From: Strigamia acuminata
Taxonomy: Eukaryota > Arthropoda > Chilopoda > Geophilomorpha > Linotaeniidae
NCBI GenBank assembly: GCA_949358305.1
Contig: OX442320.1
Coordinates: forward strand, 9,626,259 to 9,690,258
Reading direction: 5' to 3'
DNA length: 64,000 bases
The notes under the pieces were generated by a model that was not told where the DNA came from, made no database searches, and worked only from the letters and a program-made list of their open reading frames with translations. Positions 31,916 through 64,000 of this stretch are shown piece after piece (position 1 is the stretch's first letter; each line of letters opens with the position of its first letter). A program made the position numbers and the translations under genes.

Positions 31916-48475
<16,560 letters not shown>

Positions 48476-50073
48476 TAGCAATTTGAAAATCACTTCATTT
48501 TTCATCGTTTACTGCCATTCCGGCCTCATTTTCTGCACCGCCCGAGCGGTGTTTCGCGACACCGAGATGGGAGGGAAATTCACGAGTGGAATTAAGGCGC
48601 GACGTCGAAGAGTATTTTAAAATTTCCACACAATCAAGACGATTTTATGATTATGATAATCAAATCTATACTAAAACAACGGAAAATTGATGCCAACTGC
48701 TCAAGATTTGCAAGTGGCTGCTGCAATAAATGAATAAAATTAATACAAATGTTTAAAAAAGATTTGATCGGATGTAAAATAATTAAATATTGAATTTCAT
48801 AAAGATTTTTAACGAGGGTTGTTACGTACGGGTTGGCACGTTTCCCCGAGTCTTGTTTCTTGAACTGTCGGGCACATCCACAAATTTAGACTTGACGAAC
48901 AAAAAAACCGTTAACTAAATGAATAAATATTTATAAAAATAATGGAAAAAAGAAGAAAAATTTGGGTTAGGTAGAAATTGTGTCGATGAACGAGATTTGA
49001 GGAAACGAACCGACTTTGTTACATATTGTACATATGTAAAGTAATGAGAAATTCTATGGGATAAATAGTCGAAGAAAAATGCTCTCTAATTGTGTACATT
49101 TAGAATCATGTTGAAGCTGATTACTGCGTAGTTTAATTTATTTTTTCTTATTGTTTGTAAAGGGGATTACAATAATATACTGTAATTGGATTATGTACTT
49201 AAAAGATGGCTTTGTATTTTATATTTTTGATTTTTATTTGATGGTTTTATGTGTTTTATTGTTTTGGTGTTAGGTAGGATTATTTATATTTAATTTTTTG
49301 ATGGAATATTTTGGATTTTTTGGGCACTGAGATCCACCTGGGATGTCGAGTTTAGATTTAATGAAATTTTTGCAAATTCGCAACACGTAAAATATGTATT
49401 TTAAGGAAAAATCGCAAAATAAACGACTAGAATGGATTTTTCGTTGGATTTTTTCTTCAAATTTATAGTTTATTAGCAATTATCAGCACTGAAAAAGAAT
49501 TTAAAAAAACATGTGAATGGCGCCATCTTGGGCGATTTTTTCCTCCAATAAAGAAGCGCATGCAACATCATAATTCTGAGTATTGCCGAGAGATGTCGCT
49601 GGTTTTCTATGTTGCTGTCACCTAGTGAGAAAAAGGAAAATCTTTCAAATTCGAAAACCCGTCGTTTTATTGATCAAGTATGTAGAGGTTTCAATAATTC
49701 AATCCGTAAGTGTGAAATCTAGATAATAACGGAAGAAAAATATGTAATGATTTTATTTGTAGTGTCAAGATGAACTTCAAGTGGATCGTCATTTATACAC
49801 GGTGCTTCCAAAACGAAATCACCAATTCCCGATCACATCGCCCACACCCGATCATCGCCCGCCATTGTTTCCAAACAACAACTAAATTCAACTTAAATGT
49901 TCACGAATTATGAAAAACGAGTGAAACGAGGTTAAATTATGAGGTAAGATTGACTTTTTAACCCGGAATCATTGATCACAGTGTAGACAAACTGAATAAT
50001 ACCCCGAAAAAGCGAAAAGTTGATGCGTTGTTACACTTTGTTTATACATAATTTTTATTTCTTTGTCAAACAT
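48476..50073. other. Intergenic region between convergent genes
   Basis: Holds the 3' UTR of the peptidase, then AT-rich sequence to the stop of the first esterase gene. An AATAAA at 48725-48730 fits a 3' UTR of about 270 nt. No open frame looks real. Confidence 0.6.
48725..48730 (+). terminator. Polyadenylation signal of the peptidase
   Basis: AATAAA 250 bases after the stop, with a second (gaataaaat) a few bases later. It is the first canonical signal downstream. Confidence 0.5.
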
Positions 50074-53000
50074 TTAACGGTCTAGATCTAGAGCGCGGGA
50101 AATATCTTTTAACCAGAATTGAATATTTCCATCATCGTTTGGATCGTAAGAATCCACTTTGAACGGATCGGCTAAATGATAGATTTGAATATCATCTCGC
50201 TTCGATTTCGGCCATTCCGGCACGTTATTTTCAAGATATTTAGTCGGATGTCTAAATAACACATTGAAAATCAGTAAATAATATTAATTATTATTTCTTT
50301 TCTTTTACCCAAATTGTGCAAATTTCGTCCACATTTGGCGCATTGTATCTTCGGTCCGATCGATTTCGGGATTAATCGAACGATCCATAAACAGGAAAAA
50401 CAAATCGTCGCCATGACCCGGTTCTAAAACACAAGTTTCTTATTGAAATTCACAACATTTTAAACATTTCATACTTTGGTTTTTTAAAGGCTTAATTCCA
50501 AACAATTGTCCAAAGCTCTGATTGGTGACCAAATCGAACGAATACACGAAAGTGTCAACCCCGTGCTCGCTTAAAAACTCAACGGTCTGGAAATGCGGTG
50601 CCACGAAAATCGAATAACTCAAAATCTGAAACACCAATCACCATTTTACGGAACTTCTAACTGCGGTTACTACTGCGCAATGTACAACTACGTCCAGGGC
50701 TGGACTGGGAACAAATTTACTACCGGGAAATCTGGACAGGTCGGACCACGGGAGGGAACAAATTTACACAATTACTTTGACGATGGTGTCACGAATGCCG
50801 TCGGAATCATTTGGATCCACCGAATGGAAATATTCTTTCCTCAACAGATCAACTGCGGCTTTCGTCACATTTTCCTTCTTGATGCAGAGCGAGAAGGCAA
50901 TGAGTGTAGTGAGGTATTCGTCGCTAATTGTAGCGTGTTCTTTGACTTCTGTGGCTAGAATTGAAAGTAAAATTTTTTTGCTACCATTTATCAATCCAAA
51001 CCGAAATTATTCGGAAAACACCACAATAGCGACGCTGAAAAGAGCGACGTCGCTCTTTTGAAGCGCAATTTCGCTTCGTATTAGCTCGCTCTTCTCAGCG
51101 TCGCTATTAAAGGCCTTCTTCAAATTATTTACCCATTTGATAAAGTGAAGAGCCTTCGTCCTCCACAATGCCGGTCATCACCGGCACTTTATTCACAATT
51201 GCTCCATGTTTGAATAAATCGTACGAACTGTTGGGCAGGAAATGACCGTCCACTACAGGTAGAAATTGTGGTAGTATTGAGTTGTCCGAAGACGACCTCA
51301 TTTCCAAAGCGAGGATTTCGGCCGGCATTAGCCGCAAACATTGCATCATTTTCTTCTTGTTTTTGGTCGTACATCCGACACTTTCTGCAAATTGTTCGGT
51401 CCGATAAGCTGCGTCTGTGACTGAGGCCCATGGGCTTAGAGGACTTCCGCTTTGAGCAATTACCGAATGGAAAAGACCTGAAAATTGAAATATAAATATT
51501 TTTCTGAAAACTATAAATGGCGGTTTGAATGCCTGTTGAGAGTGGTGAGAGCATGTGGTATAAGACACTGAAACTTCCGGCGCTTTCCCCGAAAATGTTG
51601 ACGGTGTTGGGGTTGCCACCGAACGCGTGGATGTTGGTTTGGACCCATTTAAGCGCCTCTGTTTGGTCCAGTAAGCCGTAGTTGCCTGGAGAGTCCTCGT
51701 CCATTGTGCTGAGAAAACCTGTGGAAAATGTGTTTTTATTTTTTTTGGATTGTTTTGTTTTGTTTTTCGTACCCAAAACGTTTAAGCGATAGTTGATGGT
51801 GACTAATACGACGTCGTGGTCGAGTAAACGCCGGGGTGAGTAGATGAAACTTGTACTTGATCCCATTGTAAAGCCGCCACCGTGCATGAAGACCATTACT
51901 GGTTTTGATGGGTGGGTTTGATTTATCTGTAGATTGAAAAAAGTGGTGGAAAGATTGTTCCAAGATGGATTTTTTGAGTTAAGTGGAGTCCAAAAGTGCA
52001 TTTTTCTTTTAAAGTATGCATTTTCCCCCCCAAAAAGTGCATTTTCTCTCCAAAAAAGTGCATTTTCCCCCCAAGAAAGTGCTTTTTTTTCCCCTAGAAA
52101 GTGTTTTTTTTCCAAAAAATAGCATTTTTCTCCAGAAATTGCATTTTACTCCTAGAATTTGTATTTTTCTCTTAAAAAGTGCATTTTACTCTCAAAACAG
52201 TGCATTTTTTTCCCAAAATTTGCATTTTTCTCTTAAAAAAGTGCATTTTACCCTCAAACAAGTGCATTTTACCTTCAAACAAGTGCATTTTTCATTCAAA
52301 AAAGTGCATTTTACACGTAAAAAGTGCATTTTTTTCCAAACAAAATTGCATTTTTTTCCAAACAAAATTGCATTTTTTTCCAAACAAAATTGCATTTTTT
52401 TACAAACAAAATTGCATTTTTTTACAAACAAAATTGCATTTTTTTACAAACAAAATTGCATTTTTTTCCAAACAAAATTGCATTTTTTTCCAAACAAAAT
52501 TGCATTTTTTTCCAAACAAAATTGCATTTTTTCTCGTAAAATGCTTTATTTCTTCATTAAAGTACATTTTACTCAAGAAAAGTGCAATTTTGGTACCAAA
52601 CAAAGTGCAATTTTCATCTGAAATTTTTCTATACACTCAAAAGCTTCGCATACAGGGTTCGTATTTGAAATTACTTACATTAGTTGTATAAACATTTAAG
52701 ACAAGACAATCTTCTTTTCCCAGTAACATCCCCATGAATGGTTTCACCTGAATACACGCAGCTCCTTCCTTGGTCGCATCAAACGGCTTCTTGCTAGCCC
52801 TTAGTCGTTTAGCAACAGGTGGCTTAAAAACAAAGAAATGCTACCGTTCTTGCATTCTATACAGAGCAACGCAAAGAAAAACAATACTTTGAAACGAAGC
52901 GGTCCAATTGGTGGCTGCGCGTATGGAATTCCACGAAATGCAAAAATCTGAAGGCCATGGTTTGTTGTTTTCATGCTGGAACCACGAATCTGACCACCAG

Positions 53001-53463
53001 ATGGCAGTGTAACAATTATTTCGACATCTTTTTGTTTGGGTTTGGGCTCGATTTCTGTCACACTGTTGAGGCACTTGCAATAGCCACCTTCTTCAGGGAA
53101 CCTATCACAGTCCAGGGCAGCTGGCCATTGGATATTGTGTTGAGTGCAGTCAGTTTTCACTTGTTTGCACAAAGCTCGACATGGAGGAAAGGGATAAGTG
53201 GATTTTGTTGGGCATGATGGAGCGTAGATGGAGCAGAGGAAGAATTTGAGGTGGACACTGCATCCAGTGATTGGTGCGTATTGGGACAATTCGTTGATTG
53301 CAACACTTTGATTCTGGGACAACAAGTTTGGCACCATTACCTCGGTGGAGCTCACGTCAGTGCATTGATGGAACTCGGCCATTTGTTCACACTTGTGGGA
53401 AGATGAGGAGGCCAGTTGATTTGCAAGGAGAAAAACACTTGAGAGGAAGAAGAGCCACAGCAT
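50074..53463 (-). CDS. Secreted Frizzled-CRD / carboxylesterase fusion, copy A
   Basis: Exons, 5' to 3' on the minus strand: 53463-52888, 52822-52679, 51926-51773, 51718-51533, 51477-51133, 50954-50776, 50625-50475, 50423-50309, 50251-50074; 675 aa. Signal peptide about 1-18 (LWLFFLSSVFLLANQLA). Residues 25-131 form a Frizzled-type CRD with all ten cysteines plus one extra, with MVPNLLSQ, CSIYAPSC, PPCRALC and QWPAALDC. From about 147 on is a carboxylesterase domain: EDCLVLNVYT at 229-238, oxyanion HGGGF at 255-259, nucleophile Ser337 (GESAG), Glu461 (DEGS), His582 (PGHGDD). No second transmembrane segment or GPI tail is seen, so the product should be secreted and soluble. The start is set by homology with copy B; an upstream in-frame ATG at 53520 would add 19 residues. 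Substrate unknown; a Wnt-lipid or other lipid ester is an inference. Confidence 0.92.
51027..51112 (-). repeat. Strong intronic hairpin in copy A
   Basis: aatagcgacgctgaaaagag on one side pairs with ctcttctcagcgtcgctatt on the other. Smaller palindromes gagcgacgtcgctc and aagcgcaatttcgctt lie between the arms. It is in the 50955-51132 intron and copy B has nothing similar there. Confidence 0.8.
51478..51532 (-). other. 55-nt GC-AG intron in copy A
   Basis: The reading frame requires ...CTCAACAG|gcattc...tttcag|GTCTTTTCC, joining STG to LFHSV, a junction conserved in cholinesterase-fold proteins. The donor is GC instead of GT. Copy B has the same at 56527-56585. The length is not a multiple of three, so retention would shift the frame. 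Confidence 0.75.
51975..52620. repeat. 21-25-bp minisatellite in intron 2 of copy A
   Basis: Units built on gtgcattttt plus a variable A/C tail, becoming a homogeneous array with ttgcatttttttccaaac (about ten copies) at 52325-52530. Long Phe/Lys-rich frames open here in all directions are artefacts of the repeat. Copy B lacks this array. Confidence 0.9.
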
Positions 53464-53941
53464 TGTAGAGTTGTGGATAAAGTTGTTGAATAAGCTTATG
53501 GAGATGATGTTGTGAAACATTATTTTAAAATGAGTGATAAGATAGACTCAACTTGAACTTTGATAAGTTTAAAGCTTAAGTTTCTCTTATTTTTATTGCA
53601 TTTATTAATTTTTGTTTTGAATAGGAATTATTGATTACAGGGTGTAGACAAAATGCAACTTAGAACTACCCCAAATTGTGTTTTTATACTGTAAGTACGA
53701 TATTTTTCCTTATAATTTGTTGTGTTTGCACGACAATGGATTGTTAATCACAAGCTGTTAGAGCAAAAGAAATCGTGTGACAACGGAATTGAATTTATTG
53801 TTCTAGGCTGTGTTAAATGAAAATCGTGTAAAAACAGAATTTGGTTAACTCCGAAAAGGCGAAAACTGTTTGTAAAGATGATTGGGTGTTGTATATGCTG
53901 TTAATACTTCATATATTTATTTGTTGCTGTATATACGTCAG
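53464..53941 (-). promoter_or_regulatory. Promoter of copy A and 3' end of copy B
   Basis: Only 478 bp separate the ATG of A from the stop of B. About 95 bp upstream of A's ATG is actttgataag (CTTTGAT at 53558-53564), which fits both a TCF/LEF core and a GATA site. A second GATA-type word, gtgataagata, lies at about 53534. A TATA-like tattttaaaat sits about 60 bp upstream of the ATG. Near B's stop, AATAAA (minus strand, 53916-53921) gives a short 3' UTR. Confidence 0.45.
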
Positions 53942-56900
53942 TTAACGGTCTAGATCTAGAGCGCGGCGAATATCTTTCAACCAGAATTGAATTTTTCTAT
54001 CATCATTTGGATCGAAAGACTCCACATTGAACGGGTTGTCTAAATTGTAGATTTGAATATGACCCCGCTTCGATATCGGCCATTCCGGTACATTATCTTC
54101 AAGATATTTATTCGGGTGCCTAAATAATACATTGAAAAACAGTAAATAATAATAATTATTATTATTAGTTCTTTTCTTTTACCCAAATTGTGCAAATTTC
54201 GTCCACATTTGTCGCATTGTATCTTCAGTCCGATCCACTTCGGGATTAATTGAACGATCCATAAACAGGAAAAATAAATCGTCTCCATGACTCGGTTCTA
54301 AAGGACAAGTTTCTTAATGAAATTGACTACATTTTAAACACTTTATACTTCGGTCTTTCGTAGGTTTAACTCCAATGAATTCCCCGAAGCTCTGATTGGT
54401 GACCAATTTGAATGAGTACACGAAAGAGTCTATTCCGTTATCACATAAAAACTCAACGGTCTGGAAATGCGGTGCCACGAAATACGAATAACTCAACATC
54501 TGAAACACCAATCACAGAAGGTGATTGGGATAAACAAATCCAATGAAATAACAGAACCAAGTGTGACACTTCTGTAAAGTAGAACTATGTCTGGGGTGAT
54601 ATGAATGAACTCAAGTGACACAATCAACGATTTAACATCGCATCTAAATAGATCTATACTCAAAACCACCACAACGTTGATCTATTTCACTGGTGTAGGG
54701 ACACAAAAAAGTAGCTCATAACACCAGAATTGTACTCGAACTCCAGACATTGTGATCGATTACCAACATTGTCAAAGGTGATGCTTTGACACAGAACTAC
54801 TTTTCTGCGTAGTAGACACAGTACACAGTTAGGTGTAAACAGGCTGAAATAGATCAACGTTGTGGTGGTTTTGAGTATAGACAGCTATCTTTGTATACTC
54901 TGGCCATGTGTAAGTTGAGCCTAAATCCAAGCCTTTTCTCTGGTGTAGTGATACAAGAAAATAGATCCAAACACCAGGATTGCAACCGATCTACTGAAAT
55001 AGTAAGCGAACTTTCTAAGATTTCTGGAAGAAGCAAGCAATAAACTCTGAACTATTTTCCCTGGCGGCAGCACAGAGTGAGTTGTGAAGCTCGGATTTAG
55101 GCTCAACTTACACATGGCCAGAGTATAGATACGATATTAAACGTTGTTCGTAACTTAGGTCGTAGCAAGAACGTACGTTTGCGACTTTTAATCAAAGGAA
55201 CACAATATGCCTGGGATGGAATGAAGCAATGTATTGTGGGGGGTGGTGTAGGTACGGATTTATTGTTACCTGTGTTTGCTCTTAGTATTAGTGAAATTCG
55301 TAAAGTGTGTGTCAATGCAAGTGGCACTTCTCCAATTTTTCTAATGAGATATAGAGCATCCCCACAGACTGTACACTTCATAACAAAAGAACAGGTTAAA
55401 CTAGGTTCACACTTGTGTTCACACGAGGGGCGACGCAACGCCTGGAAAAATTAGTCACACTGTAGGGTACGAATGAAACAATTGATGTTGCGTCTGGCCA
55501 ATTAGATGGTTTCAATGAAACCTGGAATTGAATCTAGTTCTAGAACTAGTTCCAGAATCTGAAAATGGCGGCCTGTTTGCATGTGGCAAAGTCTCACCAA
55601 CCAGACATGAATCGACGAGTTGGAGTCGATTGTGATTGGGTGGCTGCAACACCTTTCCTTGCGTTGCGTCGTTTACTTCAACTAGGAGTTAAAGCAGGAA
55701 TTGGAATCAACGTGAAGAATTTTTGAACGCAAGCAGCTTGCGTTTGCGTCAGTTTTCTTGCTTGGCGTCTTGTGTGAACACATGTGTGAACCTAGCTTTA
55801 TACTTAGGTTAAACTATTGTTATGTGGCCTCCAGCCAAAGGAATTGCTGAATATTCCATTAACAAATATGAGGAGTGCCGCACATAAATAGAAACAAAGT
55901 TTAGTTCCACAACAAAAATTACTTTGACGATAATGTCATGAATGCTGTCGGAATCATCCGGGTCAACTGCATGGAAATATTCTTTGCTCAGCAGATCAAT
56001 TGCGGCCTTCGTGACATTTTCCTCGTTGAGGCGAAGCATGAAGGCAACAACTTTAGTGAGGAATTCGTCACTAATTTTGACTTTTACGTTGCCTAATGTT
56101 TCTAGAACTAGAAGTAAAGGTAATTATTTTCTATTGTAGCCAAATTGCTGCAATTTTTCCATCGAAAACGAAATTATTTACACATTCCGTAAATGGTAGC
56201 TCCTTCCTCGTCCATTATGCCAGTCATCACCGGCACTTTATTCGCAATCGCTCCGTTTTTTAATAAATCGTACGAACTGTTGGGCAGGAAATGACCGTCC
56301 ACTACGGGCAGAAATGGTGATAGCAGTGAGTTGTCCGAAGACGACCTCATTACCAAAGTGAGGATTTCGGCCGGCATTAGCCGCAAACATTGCATCATTT
56401 TTTTCTTGTTTTTGGTCGTACATCCGACACTTTCCGCAAATCGTTCGCTATGATAAGCCGCGTCTGTGGCTGCAGCCCATGGACATAGAGGACTTCCGCT
56501 TTGAGCAATTACCGAGTGGAAAAGACCTGAGAAGTGAAATAAATATGAATATTTTTTTGAAAATTAGAAATGGCGGTTTGAATGCCTGATGAAAGTGGTG
56601 CCAGCATGTGGTATAAGACACTCGCACTTCCGGCGCTTCCTCCGAAAATGTTGACGTTGTTGGGATTGCCACCGAACGCGCGGATGTTGGTTTGGACCCA
56701 TTTAAGCGCTTCTGTTTGGTCCAGTAGGCCGTAGTTGCCTGGAGACTCCTCGTCCATTGTGCTGAGGAAACCTGTGGGAAATGTGTTTTTATTTTTTTGG
56801 ATTGTTTTGTTGTGTTTTCGGACCCAAAACGTGTAAGCGATAGTTGATGGTAACTAAAACAATATTGTGATCGAGTAAACGCCGAGGTGAGTACATGCTC

Positions 56901-58497
56901 ATGGAACCTGAACCAATTGTAAAGCCGCCACCGTGCAAGAGGACCATTACTGGTTTTTCTGGTTGGGTTTGATTTATCTGAAGGTGAAAAAAAGTGATAA
57001 GAAAGCTGGTCGAAATTCTACTTTTTCCGCCTGTGATGGTGGACGTAAACAATTGAATTGTTTCCATGCACGAACAAGTTCTGAGTACACAGAATACATT
57101 GTGGTAATGCGATCGATCAAGACCGGTCGTACACAAGATGGAGATAGATACTGAATACAAAAACAGATAATACTAAAAATGTTTGATTAATTTATTTTAT
57201 TATTTATTATTAATTATTAATTTAAACATGCAGTAATCCACTTATTTTGCAATATCAAACTACAATATTTTTTAAAAGTGGTCGCCATTTGTAACTACAA
57301 CACGTGCACGGATTATGTGTACCAAACAATACCACCTTTTGCACAACTAAGGCAGCGCCATCTATTGCCAATCTCGCGCTAGGTATTATGGGATTGATAA
57401 TAGTACAAAACATACTATCATTATTGTCTGTAATATGCAAATCCAAGTTCTTGCTCTTCCCGTACTTCTGAAGTTTAGAAAAATTATAAACGATATTATT
57501 ACATCTACAGAGCAACATATTGAGCGTATTTCCCATCTCTAACAATGCAATGAGTGACACACAAAAAAAGCACGGAATGACACAGCCAAACACACAGGCG
57601 GAATCATTTCGTTTGTGGCGTGACAACGTGAAATTTCAGACTCTGAATATTCAGAGTCTAAAAGTCTCATGTGTACATAGCTTTACGTACATATAAAGGC
57701 TGCGGATAGAATTACTTACACTCGTCGTATAAACATTTAAGACAAGACAGTCTTCTTTTCCCATTAACATCCCCACCGTTGGAACCACCTGGAGACATTC
57801 AGGTCCCTCCTTGGTCGCATCAAACGGCTTCCTGCTAGCCCTCAATGGTTTAGCAACAGGCGGCTATAAAAAGTTTGAATGCCATCTGTATTTTATAGTA
57901 AAGTGCTGAGAAATATCATACTCTGAAACGAAGCGGTCCAATTGGTGGCTGCGCGTACGGAATTCCACGAAATGCAAAAATTTCAAGGCCGTAGTTTGTT
58001 GTTTTCATGCTGGAACCACGAATCTGACCACCAGATGGCAGTGTAACAATTATTTCTACTTTTTTTTGTTTGGGTTTGGGCTCGATTTCTGTCACACTGG
58101 TGAGGCACTTGCAATAGCCACCTTCTTCAGGGAATCTATCACAGTCCAGGGCAGCTGGCCATTGGATATTGTGTCGAGTGCAGTCAGTTTTCACTTTTTT
58201 GCACAAAGTTCGACATGGAGGAAAGGGATAAGTGGAAATTGTTGGGCATGATGGAGCGTAGATGGAGCAGAGGAAGGATTTAAGGTGGACACTGCATCCA
58301 GTGATTGGTGCGTATTGGGACAATTCGTTGATTGCAACACTTTGATTCTGGGACAACAAGTTTGGCACCATTACTTCGGTGGAGCTCACGTCAGTGCAGT
58401 GATGGAACTCGGCCATTTCTTCACAGTTGTGTGAAGATGATGAGGCCAGTTGATTTGCAAGGAGAAAAACACTTGAGAGGAAGAAGAGCCGCAGCAT
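53942..58497 (-). CDS. Secreted Frizzled-CRD / carboxylesterase fusion, copy B
   Basis: Exons, 5' to 3' on the minus strand: 58497-57922, 57863-57720, 56977-56824, 56771-56586, 56526-56182, 56107-55923, 54499-54349, 54297-54183, 54119-53942; 677 aa, with exon structure and phases identical to copy A except exon 6 (185 instead of 179 nt). Signal peptide MLRLFFLSSVFLLANQL. CRD with the same ten cysteines plus one; the conserved FFLC is SFLC here. Carboxylesterase residues: oxyanion HGGGF at 255-259, Ser337 (GGSAG instead of GESAG), Glu461 (DEEGA), His584 (PSHGDD). Exon 1 is 178/192 identical to copy A, exon 2 38/48, exon 3 39/52, and exon 6 clearly less. Several MITEs enlarge intron 6 to 1.4 kb. 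Likely an active or altered-specificity paralogue; secreted and soluble. Confidence 0.92.
54653..54881. mobile_element. TATACTC-type MITE in intron 6 of copy B (first of two)
   Basis: 36-bp perfect inverted arms: tctatactcaaaaccaccac then aacgttgatctatttc. Core cactggtgtagggacac and ccagacattgtgatcg. Its closest relative in the window is the inverted copy at 5042-5603. Confidence 0.9.
54894..55127. mobile_element. TATACTC-type MITE in intron 6 of copy B (second of two)
   Basis: Arms tatactctggccatgtgtaa then gttgagcctaaatcc, mirrored at 55089-55127. It lies 12 bp from the previous element. Core tctggtgtagtgatac and aaaatagatccaaacacc is shared with the family; the arms are not. Confidence 0.9.
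55397..55800. mobile_element. MITE in intron 6 of copy B
   Basis: Ends ctaggttcacacttgtgttc then acacgag, paired with gtgtgaacacatgtgtgaac then ctag. Arms are CpG-containing (gacgcaacgcc). Non-coding. The 55128-55396 stretch between it and the previous MITE is not identified. Confidence 0.75.
56527..56585 (-). other. 59-nt GC-AG intron in copy B
   Basis: Donor TCATCAG|gcattc, acceptor cttctcag|GTC. There is no GT nearby that could replace the donor, which supports the GC assignment also made in copy A. Confidence 0.8.
56978..57719 (-). other. Intron 2 of copy B
   Basis: 742 bp without recognisable coding sequence. It is unrelated to the minisatellite that fills intron 2 of copy A. Confidence 0.6.
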
Positions 58498-59027: not shown

Positions 59028-59110
59028 TTAACGGTCTAGATCTAGAGCGCGGCGAATATCTTCCAACCAGAATTGAATTTGTCTATCATCGTTTGGATCG
59101 AAAGACTCGA
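59028..59110 (-). pseudogene. Remnant of a third esterase copy (last exon only)
   Basis: Reads from the stop backwards as the final ~27 codons of exon 9 (ending RALDLDR), closely matching copies A and B. Homology stops abruptly at about 59110 (aaagactcga). No upstream exon is visible before the transposase-like gene. This marks the broken end of the tandem array. Confidence 0.85.
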
Positions 59111-59500
59111 GGGGTGCGACATTTGACCGAATCTCTGACAATGGCTTCCGAATCTCGCCCGAATCTTTCCGAATCCCGCCCGAATCTTTCCGAATCCCGC
59201 CCGAATCTTTCCGAATCCCACCGAATCTTCGAATCTCGAATCTTTAAATTGTATACAAATCGAGGAAAATAAAGTCAAAATTTATGATAAAAAAATGTAA
59301 TAATATTTTTACAAAAAACTGGAATAACCAAGGGAATAACTGACAACTGTAAATAAATCGAGAAATAAATGTTCCACATTGAAATTGTCGGAAATTGTCG
59401 TTGAAATTGTCCGTATCGGAGGAAATTATACCTGCGCACCTCGCTGCGCGGTATCTGCGCATGCGCATTTATGATTTAGCGCGAACTTCAAATTAATCCC
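59111..59500. other. Intergenic, with CpG-rich patch
   Basis: Includes three to four copies of a 20-bp unit with cccgaatctttccgaatc at 59145-59225. A perfect NRF1-type palindrome tgcgcatgcgca lies at 59456-59467. Confidence 0.6.
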
Positions 59501-60645
59501 GGAATTCAACATTGTTCGCAATTGTGATTGAGTTGGATTGCGTGCTATTTTACCTCGTATTTTACTTTATCCTATTAAAGGTAAGACTTTTGCGGATTAT
59601 TATTTTCTCATTGATTATTTTTATGATGCTTTTCGTTCCAACTACAGGTTCCTCTGGCAAGTTCCATTCATACGACCATACGAAAATTGTTACGAAAGTC
59701 GACGATTTTTTTAGCGCTACGGTGAAATTCGAGTCAAACTTGAATTGAAATTGAATTGAAATTGAATAATTAGTACGGTAACAGATTATGAACTAAGTGC
59801 GCGTTAATTTGATATTTCGGAAAAGCTATTTCTATTGATATCGGTTGAAATATACGTATGGCGACGTATGGGCTATTTCGGGCTATTTTCACCGATTTTG
59901 GTTGAAATGATCGCCAAATTCCTACTAAAAAAAATGTTCCTTATTCCACAAGAAAATATATTATTCGTTTTTTTTATTCTAATGAAAAAAAAATCTGATT
60001 TGATTTACTACTAACTTGTAAGTTATTAATTTAAAGGAAAATGAAACTCTTTAAAATTTGTAATTAGCAAAATAAGATCTTTTTTTTTTGTTTTTTTTTA
60101 TTAAATTTGAGTATGGATTATAAATAAAACAAAATAAATAAAATATATTACCTGATTCTTTTTTTATATTCCATACACAAATGTAATGGAATCGAATGGA
60201 ATAATGAACAAATTTTTTTATAATTTACCTTACTTTTACTTATATTGGCCAATGATAGAGGTGTCTCGCAAAGATATTATCGAGGATATTATTCATTTTT
60301 TCGACCAAAAATTCATTTTTTGGACGAAAAATTCATTTTTTGAACGAAAAATTCATTTTTAGGTTAAAAAAAATTCATTTTTTTGACAAAAAATTTATTT
60401 TTTGGACGAAAAATTTATTTTTTGGACCAAAAATTCATTTTTATGTTAAAAAAATTCATTTTTAGGTTAAAAAAAATTGTTATTTACACCCAAAAAATGA
60501 GCCGGCAATAACTTCGCAATGCGTCTGCAAAAGGGCGGTTTTTTGATCCGCTTTCCGGCTACAATTACGTCGTTTTAGGCCCGCAAAAATAGCAGCTTTA
60601 CTAATAAATAATGTTTTGCTTCAGATTTCTTTTTCTGTGGGAAGG
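59456..60645 (+). promoter_or_regulatory. Promoter, 5' UTR and 5' intron of the transposase-like gene
   Basis: The NRF1 palindrome is followed by a likely non-coding first exon ending at the donor attaaag|gtaaga (59580). The acceptor tttgcttcag (ending about 60623) precedes the ATG at 60646 by about 20 bases. The intervening 1 kb is AT-rich, with a run of gaaaaattcattttttg units at 60290-60475. Confidence 0.4.
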
Positions 60646-63600
60646 ATGTCGGATGGAACGGTTTGGCAATTCGCAACAGAGAATGATATTTCGCCACAGA
60701 TCCAAGCCTGCTTGAAAGCTGCAGGATATTTCACATTAACTGGAATTTCAAAAATTGAAAGCAATGAATTGATTGAAAAATATCTGCAGGATACAGCTGA
60801 TCTATACGAAGATGAGAAAGAGCTGAAAGCGATTTATGGAAAATTCCATAAAAAGCCCGAGAAATTTCGTTTTGCACCTGGACAACATGAAGAAATAACA
60901 CGATTTAAAGATATCTGTCGAAGGAAAATCGATGACAACGAGAAAACCGTGGTGAAAACACATAAGCGGCTGAGACTGTCAGACAAAGCTAATGATTCTT
61001 GTGGTCAGAAGTTTTGCAACTATGGAACTGAAAAAAGCACCACATCAAACACCAATACGTCAGAAACCGACACTCATGAATCCATAATTTACACTGATGT
61101 GAAATTAAAAATGAGAAAATGGCTTGCAAAACAGACTGATCCAGCGCTAAAGAGTTTAAAACACGAAAAAGATTTTAAATTTACCGTATCCTCCAGCGAA
61201 TCAAGCAGTGACAATATATTTGAACATTATGAAGTTGTGGTGTTGTGTTTGATGTGTAATGGGAAAATACGATTGCACATCAGAGATAAACACTTTACTG
61301 TTTTCAATGCAACAAGACATCTAGAAAAGTGCGCTAAAAGGTGTAAATTTGGAAACATGACCCAAAAAAGTTTGCCATTATATTTCCGTGCAACAGGAGA
61401 GAAGAATGGGGAAGAAATAACCCACAACGATGATAATGATAATGACCAGTTTAATTATGTTACAGAAAATAATGACAATGTAAGCTTATGTACGAATGAA
61501 ATGCAATTAGATCTTGAGTTGGGTGCAAATCAAGATATTGTAACAACCACGCCAATAGGTAATGAATAAATAAATTGTTTTATGCCTTTTACAAATGATA
61601 ACAAATTTTTATAAAATTGCAGAAATGTACTCCAGAGCTTATTACAGAAAAGAAAAAAGCAAAAAGGAATTGTTACAATCAAGTGCGATGTGCCAAAAGA
61701 TTACCAATTTTTACAACCCTCTTGATGAAATTCGACACTTGTTAATTGAAAACAAAAATTTAAACAACTTTATAACGCATTTGCTGCAGCAGCAAAGTAC
61801 GGCAGTTACTGAAGACCACTCAAGCCTGGAACACACTGTTGAATCCACGGTTAAACCCAGCAATTTTTTGCAGCTAATGTGGGATGCAGCTATCTCAAAT
61901 ACCAAACGAAAACGAAATGAATACGACTCAGATTCGATAAAAGAATTTGCTATGTTGTTATTTATGTGGCTTGGACCATCGAAATACACAATTTTATATG
62001 CGAATTTAAATTCCGGTATACCAAGCAGTCGCCAGGTTGAAAGATACCTAAAAAAATTCCAAAACGATATTACAGAGGGAAAACTAAGAATTGGTTATTT
62101 GAAGCAACATATGGAGAGGTACAACTGTACTAACAACACTGTTTGGTTAAGTGAGGATGCAACACGCCTAGTGCAATCAATCAACTATGATGGCGATAAA
62201 AATGCATGTGTTGGATTTGTCTCACCGATATCAGCAAGTGGATTGCCGGAAATTAATACGTTTCCATTCACATCCATACCAGATGTCAAAGCTTACTTCA
62301 AAAATTATAATTTTGCTAATCAAGCATACGTTATTATGGCACAACCAATGTGTCCAAATGTTCCAGCCATTTGTTTTTGTTTATTTGGAAGTGATAATAA
62401 ATTCACATCTACTAATGTTCTGAACCGATGGAAAACAACACTTGATGAGTGCAATGCAAATGATATTGTGATCGCAGGTTTCAGCGCTGATGGTGATCCG
62501 AAATTATTAAGGAGTATGCAGTTATCAAGTGGTCTGTTTTGTGAACCAAAAACAGTCTTTCAAGAAAAAGAAGAGGATCCAAACAGGATTTCTTCAACTG
62601 AAAACAAATGGTTTATTATGAATGGAAACATAAAGTTTTCTCTCATTCAGGACACTATTCACATTGGGGCAAAGCTACGTTGTCGTTTGCTTAAGAAAAA
62701 TCGTTTACCAATTGGACACCGTTTTATATGCATTTCACATTTACAGCATATAGTGGAAAATAATTCAAAGGATTCACATCCATTAAGACTTTCTGATCTT
62801 GATTGCCGAGACAAGATGAACTATGCAGCTGTCGAGCGAATGGTGTCCAAAAATGTTCTTGAATTAATTGAAAAAAAAGAAGAATTTAGAGGAACATTAT
62901 TGTATCTAAAAGTGATGAAATTTGTGTTGGATTGTTTTTTAGCAGACGACTTGTCTCCTCTCAAACGAATAGAGAAAATTTGGACTGCGATTTTCATCTT
63001 ACGAGGATGGAGATTCTGGTTAAAAAACTGTACCACTTGCAAGCAACTGGACAGTTTTATAACTACCAATGCGTATCAGTGCATCGAATTAAATGGCCAC
63101 AGTTTAATACGTGTTATTGAAACTTGCAGAGAAAATTCATTGCCATTTTTACCACAATTACTTGGATCGCAACAATGTGAACAACTCTTTCGTATTGCCA
63201 GAAGTTACTCTGTTGTGAATTCAACAATTGTTAATTTCAGTCTCAGTGAGTTGATAAAAAAAATTTATCGAATTGAATCCGAATTAGCTGTCAGAGCTTC
63301 TGCCAATTCGAATAACATTCTAAAGATGCCAAAATTAAAAAAATATTCATCTAAGATGGGTGAAATGCCTTCGACATTCCAAAATGTTAGCTGTCCAACA
63401 AAGAATGAAATAATCATAGACGGTATTTCTAAGGCACAACGAAAAGCTGTGCTATTATTGCACAGTGTGGGGATCGGCTTTTTATATCCAAACAACATAT
63501 TCAATGATAATTTACTTGTTAAGGATGTCATTGTCAGATCTGACCATTTAAGTCAAAATGAAGAGGAAGAATCCGAAACCAACATTGAACCAAATGAAAA

Positions 63601-63895
63601 AGTAACTCCGATATTAGATGAAGATGAGGAAACACAGGCAAATTTAGAAGTTATGACACGAAATAATTTAACTAGAAAATTAAAAAAAGTGAAAATAAAT
63701 GGACTGTCATGCTTTGTATATGCTGACCAAGAAGAACCATTTTCATTTGATGATATTCCAATTGAAAGTCTGTACGTGCCGTATATGATCAAACAAAAAA
63801 ATGTTTTAATTCGAAAAACAACAGCTCTTAGACTTATCCATGAAAGAGGATTCTTGTCATCAGATAGACAATTACGTGTACAAGGAAAATTTTGA
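60646..63895 (+). CDS. Transposase-like protein, family not identified
   Basis: Two exons, 60646-61558 and 61623-63895, joined across a 64-nt GT-AG intron in phase 1; 1061 aa with no stops or frameshifts. The N-terminal third has a zinc-finger-like C201-x2-C204...H225-x3-C229 motif, set in VLCLMCNGK and NATRHLEKC, of the kind found in DNA-binding transposase heads. The large second half has acidic residues spaced as in RNase-H-fold transposases with a helical insertion: Asp483 (WLSEDATR), Asp594 or Asp596 (FSADGDP) and Glu824 (GSQQCEQLFR). I recall related uncharacterised proteins in insects and cnidarians but cannot name the superfamily. It could be an active or recently active DNA transposon, or a domesticated gene. 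AATAAA signals follow at about 63926. Terminal inverted repeats were not found inside the window. Confidence 0.75.
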
Positions 63896-64000
63896 TTGTA
63901 AATTTTAATATTTCAATAGTCTCAAATAAAACTAAATAAATGTTCATTTTATTAAATGTCTCAAATAAAATGAAAAAATATCTCCCACTTTACTAAATTT
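63896..64000 (+). other. 3' UTR of the transposase-like gene, window edge
   Basis: Contains aataaaac and taaataaatg soon after the stop. The 3' boundary of any transposon lies outside the window or is not recognisable. Confidence 0.5.

What the first reader, a model, noticed from the sequence alone, without database searches (positions are those of the whole stretch)
50074..58497. Frizzled-type CRD fused to a catalytically intact carboxylesterase: candidate lipid-capturing secreted esterase
Seen: two intact genes each encode a signal peptide, a full 10-Cys Frizzled CRD, then a complete carboxylesterase domain with oxyanion loop and Ser/Glu/His triad. The join between the two domains (CRD, then VTLPSGGQIRG) lies inside a single exon, so it cannot be a mis-joined gene model. 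Known: Fz CRDs bind the Wnt palmitoleate; Notum removes it but belongs to a different hydrolase family; carboxypeptidase Z is a precedent for CRD plus enzyme. Inference: this may be an independently evolved extracellular Wnt (or other lipid ester) hydrolase. I know of no described protein with this architecture.
Basis: partly seen in the sequence, partly recalled or inferred. Interest (0 to 1): 0.93.

Follow-up and report, generated by a model that had tools for sequence, protein, structure and literature searches.

The report
Frizzled-domain esterase array in a centipede
Two genes of what is likely a centipede genome encode an enzyme of the carboxylesterase family joined, in one exon, to the receptor-type domain that in other proteins holds Wnt signals, a pairing that our protein searches did not find elsewhere; the enzyme is predicted to be secreted and active, but its receptor-type domain lacks several of the positions that form the groove for a Wnt's fat chain, so it likely does something other than catch Wnt.

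Summary
On the minus strand, genes A (53463-50074) and B (58497-53942) each encode signal peptide + Fz CRD (11 Cys) + full COesterase with oxyanion loop and Ser/Glu/His. CRD and esterase start share one 576-bp exon. By size the genome matches the centipede Strigamia acuminata. The array has five genes. C and D, mostly or wholly outside the window, share the fused exon; C is broken by a 5.2-kb insertion. E has two CRDs in one exon, then an intron, then the esterase. This suggests one fusion, loss of CRD2 plus intron, and tandem amplification with gene conversion. CRD1 groups with a CRD of a little-described multi-CRD protein, not with this genome's Frizzleds. The esterase belongs to a centipede clade; three of four S. 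maritima relatives end in ER-retention-like xxEL, the fusions do not. No CRD-COesterase protein appeared among the 120 listed of 4341 hits, nor among 19 CRD hits. Lipid capture is weak for A and B: three of eight Frizzled groove positions are missing and one is His. Only E's CRD2 keeps a hydrophobic set (7 of 8). Best reading: a secreted ester hydrolase whose CRD binds or anchors, not a Notum-like Wnt deacylase. Expression and activity are untested.

The parts
50074..53463 (-). gene A: signal peptide-CRD1-COesterase, 675 aa, nine exons
   Evidence: spliced model without stops or frameshifts, stop codon TAA at 50074-50076
52888..53463 (-). gene A exon 1: signal peptide, whole CRD1, linker and start of esterase in one open frame
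   Evidence: Fz 66.5 bits and COesterase 39.4 bits on the same ORF
53071..53391 (-). gene A CRD1 (Cys25-Cys131)
52981..53025 (-). gene A domain join VEIIVTLPSGGQIRG inside exon 1
   Evidence: codon positions 147-161; same join in B, C, D
52679..52822 (-). gene A exon 2
51773..51926 (-). gene A exon 3, with oxyanion loop HGGGF
51533..51718 (-). gene A exon 4; catalytic Ser337 at 51582-51584 (GESAG)
51133..51477 (-). gene A exon 5; catalytic Glu461 at 51155-51157
50776..50954 (-). gene A exon 6
50475..50625 (-). gene A exon 7
50309..50423 (-). gene A exon 8; catalytic His582 at 50413-50415
50074..50251 (-). gene A exon 9 with stop; C-terminus ALDLDR, no xxEL
53942..58497 (-). gene B: signal peptide-CRD1-COesterase, 677 aa, nine exons (57922-58497, 57720-57863, 56824-56977, 56586-56771, 56182-56526, 55923-56107, 54349-54499, 54183-54297, 53945-54119, stop 53942-53944)
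   Evidence: spliced model without stops or frameshifts
58105..58425 (-). gene B CRD1 (Cys25-Cys131)
   Evidence: Fz 65.2 bits; positions
58015..58059 (-). gene B domain join inside exon 1
56635..56637 (-). gene B catalytic Ser337 (GGSAG)
56204..56206 (-). gene B catalytic Glu461
54287..54289 (-). gene B catalytic His584
59028..59107 (-). end of the last exon of gene C with its stop codon; the rest of C lies beyond the window, at L009:300-3851
   Evidence: best spliced match of 59000-64320 to protein A; translation and the 8-bp duplication at its edge
59108..64000 (.). start of a 5192-bp insertion that splits the last exon of gene C; it ends at L009:299
   Evidence: 8-bp target duplication GAAAGACT and short inverted ends

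Best explanation
Two genes of a five-gene tandem array in what is likely a centipede genome each encode one protein made of a predicted signal peptide, a Frizzled-type cysteine-rich domain and a type-B carboxylesterase with all its catalytic residues, and the protein is predicted to be a secreted ester hydrolase in which the cysteine-rich domain likely binds or anchors the enzyme rather than catching a Wnt acyl chain. Shown from sequence: the architecture, the complete triad and oxyanion loop, the single-exon join in four copies, the two-CRD sister gene E, the missing groove positions in CRD1, and the absence of the C-terminal xxEL seen in several close relatives. Inferred: an esterase of a centipede clade was first joined, through a phase-1 intron, to the front half of a multi-CRD secreted protein gene, giving the E type. 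A deletion then removed CRD2 and the intron and made the fused exon of A-D, and tandem duplication with gene conversion spread it. Inferred and untested: the enzyme leaves the cell, hydrolyses small or lipid esters in a secretion such as venom, gut or body fluid, and uses CRD1 for protein or matrix contact or for pairing.
Against: No transcript, protein or assay evidence. A groove-poor CRD may still bind lipid in another way; 9 of 96 other CRDs in the set, two or more of them truncated pieces, also have at most 4 of 8 hydrophobic positions. The esterase tree pairs D with E (support 82) and the CRD tree pairs C with E (98/94), which taken alone conflict with one fusion shared by A-D; gene conversion is my explanation, from the mosaic exon identities. 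Signal peptide and secretion are read from sequence, without a dedicated predictor; 38 of the 60 relatives also lack xxEL. The five-order venom study that includes S. maritima does not mention carboxylesterase in its main text. No binding partner is known.
Confidence: 0.5

Rival explanations
1. Extracellular Wnt deacylase: the CRD docks acylated Wnt and the esterase removes the palmitoleate, an independently evolved Notum.
For: CRD is of the Frizzled type by sequence and fold; triad complete; E carries CRD2 with 7 of 8 groove positions hydrophobic.
Against: In A-D the only CRD lacks three groove positions and has His at a fourth. Five copies in one genome and none found elsewhere in our searches fit poorly with a conserved developmental role. 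The esterase groups with ordinary centipede esterases. Whether this genome has Notum could not be asked.
Confidence: 0.07
2. E-type enzyme as general acyl-ester catcher: CRD2 holds a fatty-acyl chain and hands the ester to the esterase; A-D are derivatives that lost this.
For: Groove set of CRD2 WALLTLLF; CRD2 nearest to FZD7 and FZD2 among solved chains, E 2e-25; in-frame phase-1 splice with consensus-like sites from CRD2 to the esterase.
Against: No structure of E was predicted; CRD2 sits on a long branch of unresolved place; four of five copies do without it.
Confidence: 0.1
3. The CRD is a passive leftover of an exon-capture event that supplied a promoter and signal peptide; the working part is the esterase alone.
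For: The first exon brings signal peptide and CRD together; missing groove positions.
Against: CRD dN/dS is 0.22-0.56 in the six pairs and the CRD is more conserved in protein sequence than the esterase in each pair, though gene conversion could also do that.
Confidence: 0.2
4. The CRD exon and the esterase belong to two genes.
For: In E an intron lies between them, and its CRD exon has its own in-frame stop if that intron is kept.
Against: In A-D the join is inside one exon, in frame, in four copies.
Confidence: 0.03

Closest known systems
Type-B carboxylesterases of centipedes (S. maritima P0024, P0041; centipede venom COesteraseB)
   Same: COesterase fold, triad, oxyanion loop; A-E nest with P0024 and P0058
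   Different: no CRD in P0024 and P0041; P0024, P0041 and P0059 end in xxEL
Multi-CRD proteins (P0121-P0136: crustaceans, fishes, coral and unnamed sources)
   Same: tandem Fz CRDs; CRD1 groups with a CRD of P0121
   Different: no COesterase in the precomputed Pfam column of these 16, nor of the 3 Frizzled receptors found with them
Carboxypeptidase Z and corin (recalled)
   Same: Frizzled CRD on a secreted or surface hydrolase
   Different: a metallopeptidase and a serine protease, not a carboxylesterase
Notum (recalled, and search listing of PMC8172013)
   Same: secreted serine ester hydrolase near Wnt biology
   Different: other hydrolase family, no CRD (recalled); Wnt deacylation not shown here
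Secreted Frizzled-related proteins, sizzled
   Different: no esterase (recalled)

Membership tests
Frizzled-type CRD (PF01392) | profile score over the curated cut-off | tested here: met
   66.5 and 65.2 bits against 32.1
Frizzled-type CRD (PF01392) | ten conserved cysteines | tested here: met
   11 Cys at 25-131, ten plus one extra
Frizzled-type CRD (PF01392) | CRD fold | tested here: met
acyl-binding Frizzled CRD | hydrophobic acyl groove residues | tested here: not met
   CRD1 of A-E: 4 of 8 hydrophobic, 3 missing, 1 His (residue list); E CRD2 keeps 7 of 8. Lipid binding itself was not tested
Type-B carboxylesterase (PF00135) | profile over cut-off along the whole domain | tested here: met
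   443.5 bits, profile 4-503 of 515, protein A
Type-B carboxylesterase (PF00135) | Ser-Glu-His triad and GGG oxyanion loop | tested here: met
   aligned to solved esterases
Type-B carboxylesterase (PF00135) | ester hydrolysis | not testable with these tools
   needs protein
Notum-like Wnt deacylase | removes palmitoleate from Wnt | not testable with these tools
   needs assay
Notum | PF03283 family (accession recalled) | tested here: not met
   Pfam scan of A, B, D, E lists COesterase, Fz, BD-FAE, Abhydrolase_3 and Say1_Mug180 only, at E 0.01
centipede venom COesteraseB | present in venom | not testable with these tools
   no expression data; the main text of PMC6878950, which profiles S. maritima venom, holds 'esterase' only inside phosphodiesterase and no 'carboxyl'

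The most novel reading that the evidence does not exclude
Centipedes of this genus have built a secreted, CRD-guided ester hydrolase from scratch: in gene E a groove-bearing CRD2 captures an acylated ligand and the linked esterase cleaves it, a second origin of extracellular deacylation beside Notum, from which the single-CRD copies later drifted to other esters.
Probability: 0.1. Interest if true: 0.85.

Novelty: new variant of a known kind. Interest (0 to 1): 0.52.

Why it matters
It is a Frizzled-type CRD joined to a carboxylesterase, a domain pairing that our protein and paper searches did not turn up elsewhere. The array shows a candidate route for it: fusion through an intron (E), then loss of a CRD and the intron (A-D). 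It also gives a natural test set, one enzyme with a groove-bearing CRD and several without, to ask what a CRD does for a secreted hydrolase, and it draws attention to a little-described family of multi-CRD proteins.

Tried and rejected
Mis-joined gene model: rejected, the join lies in one exon in four copies. Frizzled receptor as CRD donor: not favoured, CRD1 groups with a multi-CRD protein. The neighbouring receptor tyrosine kinase as CRD donor: considered because kinase exons lie upstream of E (L010:3637-8074) and the best solved matches of one kinase exon are Trk and MuSK; the genome-wide Fz search lists no CRD in the 10 kb beyond it, and CRD1 and CRD2 score higher against Frizzled CRDs than against MuSK. 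Chance match: rejected by scores and selection.

Led nowhere: homolog search with the CRD region of A gave 165 candidates and none at E 0.001, although with E found 19, so one search was insensitive. Paper searches: 15 papers hold 'frizzled', 'carboxylesterase' and 'cysteine-rich domain', 14 listed, and none describes the architecture by title or start of abstract; 0 papers (21, 7 and 4 papers) gave background only. In fold comparison only CRDs fill the rows shown, which excludes nothing else. The first spliced model of C showed a false frameshift because A was the query; with B as query it is in frame up to the insertion. The whole-genome count of COesterase genes, whether other CRD exons of this genome are joined to esterases, and whether Notum is present were not settled.
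Full report
Source. The assembly that holds the window has 237,517,015 bases in 157 contigs, and the window lies on a contig of 12,254,865 bases. The genome note of the centipede Strigamia acuminata (PMC10556566, outline and section 5 read) gives 237.5 Mb, 158 scaffolds and chromosomes of 66.99, 37.79, 19.35 and 12.25 Mb; the contigs seen here of 37.79, 19.34 and 12.25 Mb fit. I infer S. acuminata, chromosome 7, from these sizes. That assembly is HiFi-based with QV 59.6, so a sequencing chimera in four copies is unlikely.

Observation. Gene A (53463-50074) and gene B (58497-53942) have nine exons each and no stops or frameshifts. Exon 1 codes for a leader, the whole CRD, a short linker and the start of the esterase; both Pfam families score over cut-off on that one open frame. 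Protein A scores COesterase 443.5 bits and Fz 63.9 bits; both families match in 4 of 4 members scanned, that is A, B, D and E of five genes; C was left out because it is broken. Ser337, Glu461 and His582 (A) or His584 (B), and the HGGGF loop, are present.

Array. Beyond the window the array goes on. C has the same fused exon, but its last exon is split by a 5192-bp insertion with an 8-bp duplication and short inverted ends. D has no stop or frameshift. E has none if spliced as follows: one exon with leader, CRD1 and CRD2, donor AAAAG|GTGAGA, a 359-bp phase-1 intron, acceptor TTAG|ATGAG, then the esterase exon, 797 residues in all. Further upstream lies a decayed third CRD with two stops (L010:2932-3285) and then a receptor tyrosine kinase gene, one exon of which is nearest to Trk and MuSK.

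How the fusion arose (inference). In E the CRD1 end reads ...AAAAAGATGTAGAAATTGATTATG and the esterase exon start reads ...TTAGATGAGATAATCGTT; A and D read AAAAAGATGTCGAAATAATTGTT, B and C differ slightly, as if a deletion between two similar short stretches had removed CRD2 and the intron. The esterase part of exon 1 is 93.0-96.1% identical among A-D but 84.5-87.6% to E; other exons pair differently (for instance exon 6 B-C 93.0 and D-E 92.2, exon 7 A-D 95.4), which I read as gene conversion. The esterase tree pairs D with E at 82 and the CRD tree pairs C with E at 98/94, which taken alone speak against one fusion shared by A-D.

Origin of the parts. Searching with the CRD1-CRD2 region of E gave 19 proteins: 16 with several CRDs and no other Pfam family in the precomputed column, from crustaceans, fishes, coral and unnamed sources, and 3 Frizzled receptors, two of them named frizzled-9-like; none has COesterase there. 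In a tree of 73 CRDs, 125 columns, CRD1 of A-E joins the second CRD of a Halocaridina multi-CRD protein (98/88), while this genome's Frizzled CRDs stand elsewhere; many forks are unresolved, the bootstrap had not settled, and CRD2 of E is unplaced. For that tree I left out six multi-CRD proteins (P0125, P0126, P0130, P0132, P0133, P0134) that resemble others, three weak loci (L012, L013, L017) and CRDs shorter than 75 residues. Searching with the alignment of A, B, D and E gave 4341 proteins at E 1e-5 among 7987 scored; of the 120 listed, none carries PF01392 in the precomputed column; the other 4221 were not seen. The nearest single-domain protein is P0024 of Strigamia maritima, 42% identical, with its N-terminal leader straight before the esterase. 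In a tree of 32 esterase rows (5 of ours, 27 chosen from 60 single-domain-length hits) A-E form one clade next to P0024 and P0058 (95) inside a centipede group.

Secretion. Of the 60 single-domain-length relatives, 22 end in xxEL, among them 3 of the 4 from S. maritima (the fourth, P0058, is a shorter model); A and B end ALDLDR, D and E ALDLER. That a C-terminal xxEL can keep esterases in the ER is established knowledge (recalled). I infer that the CRD enzymes leave the cell.

Groove test. A review of fatty-acid binding by Frizzled CRDs (PMC6333880, passages) lists for FZD7 the residues F86, P88, L89, V92, L134, M135, F138 and F140. I mapped them through this genome's own Frizzled L001, which shares those motifs, onto 101 CRDs of 75 residues or more, truncated pieces included and L012, L013, L017 left out. 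CRD1 of all five copies reads Y, P, I, gap, gap, gap, H, I. No other row has gaps at those three positions and residues on both sides. The other 96 have a mean of 6.65 hydrophobic of 8, and 9 have at most 4, truncated pieces among them. E CRD2 reads W, A, L, L, T, L, L, F. The count of hydrophobic residues is a crude measure; the missing positions are the stronger point. CRDs without a groove have precedents: the ROR2 paper (PMC11219042, passages) reports that ROR2 and MuSK CRDs lack it.

Selection. For the six pairs of A, B, D, E, dN/dS is 0.28-0.51 over all codons, 0.22-0.56 in the CRD and 0.30-0.51 in the esterase (Nei-Gojobori). The linker of 19 codons is too short to judge.

Meaning. The sequence shows an enzyme with a CRD; it does not show the substrate. 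Type-B carboxylesterases occur in centipede venoms with unknown function (PMC4379518, passages; PMC5869384, passages; PMC11170834 lists the abbreviation COEsteraseB, passage), which makes a secretion role plausible. The main text of the five-order venom study that includes S. maritima does not mention carboxylesterase (PMC6878950, term searches), which gives no support for geophilomorph venom. I commit to a secreted ester hydrolase with a CRD used for binding or anchoring (0.5), and keep lipid capture by E's CRD2 as the most novel open reading (0.1).

Noticed in passing
window 59108 to L009:299: A 5192-bp insertion splits the last exon of gene C, with 8-bp target duplication and short inverted ends, and two long plus-strand open frames (60547-61569 and 61574-63895) without a Pfam match at E 0.01 and, for the longer, no solved relative below E 0.4; probably a DNA transposon of a kind not recognised here.
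   Followed up: partly
L010:1614-2456: CRD1-CRD2 exon of gene E has an in-frame stop soon after its donor, so an unspliced transcript would make a two-CRD protein without the esterase.
   Followed up: no
L010:2932-3285: A decayed third CRD with two stops between gene E and the kinase gene, possibly what is left of an older multi-CRD gene.
   Followed up: partly
L010:3637-8074: Exons of a receptor tyrosine kinase nearest to Trk and MuSK, with a weak EGF-like exon below the Pfam cut-off.
   Followed up: partly
P0121-P0136: Proteins with 3 to 9 Frizzled CRD matches each in crustaceans, fishes, coral and unnamed sources, mostly named uncharacterized or hypothetical; in the fish proteins the first CRD, and in several the third, is groove-poor and others are groove-rich.
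   Followed up: partly
genes A-E, intron after the exon with the catalytic Ser: This intron has a GC donor (GCATTC) in all five copies.
   Followed up: no
window about 45263-48480: Plus-strand open frames that look by eye like a prolyl oligopeptidase (DPP4-like) gene next to gene A; no search was made.
   Followed up: no
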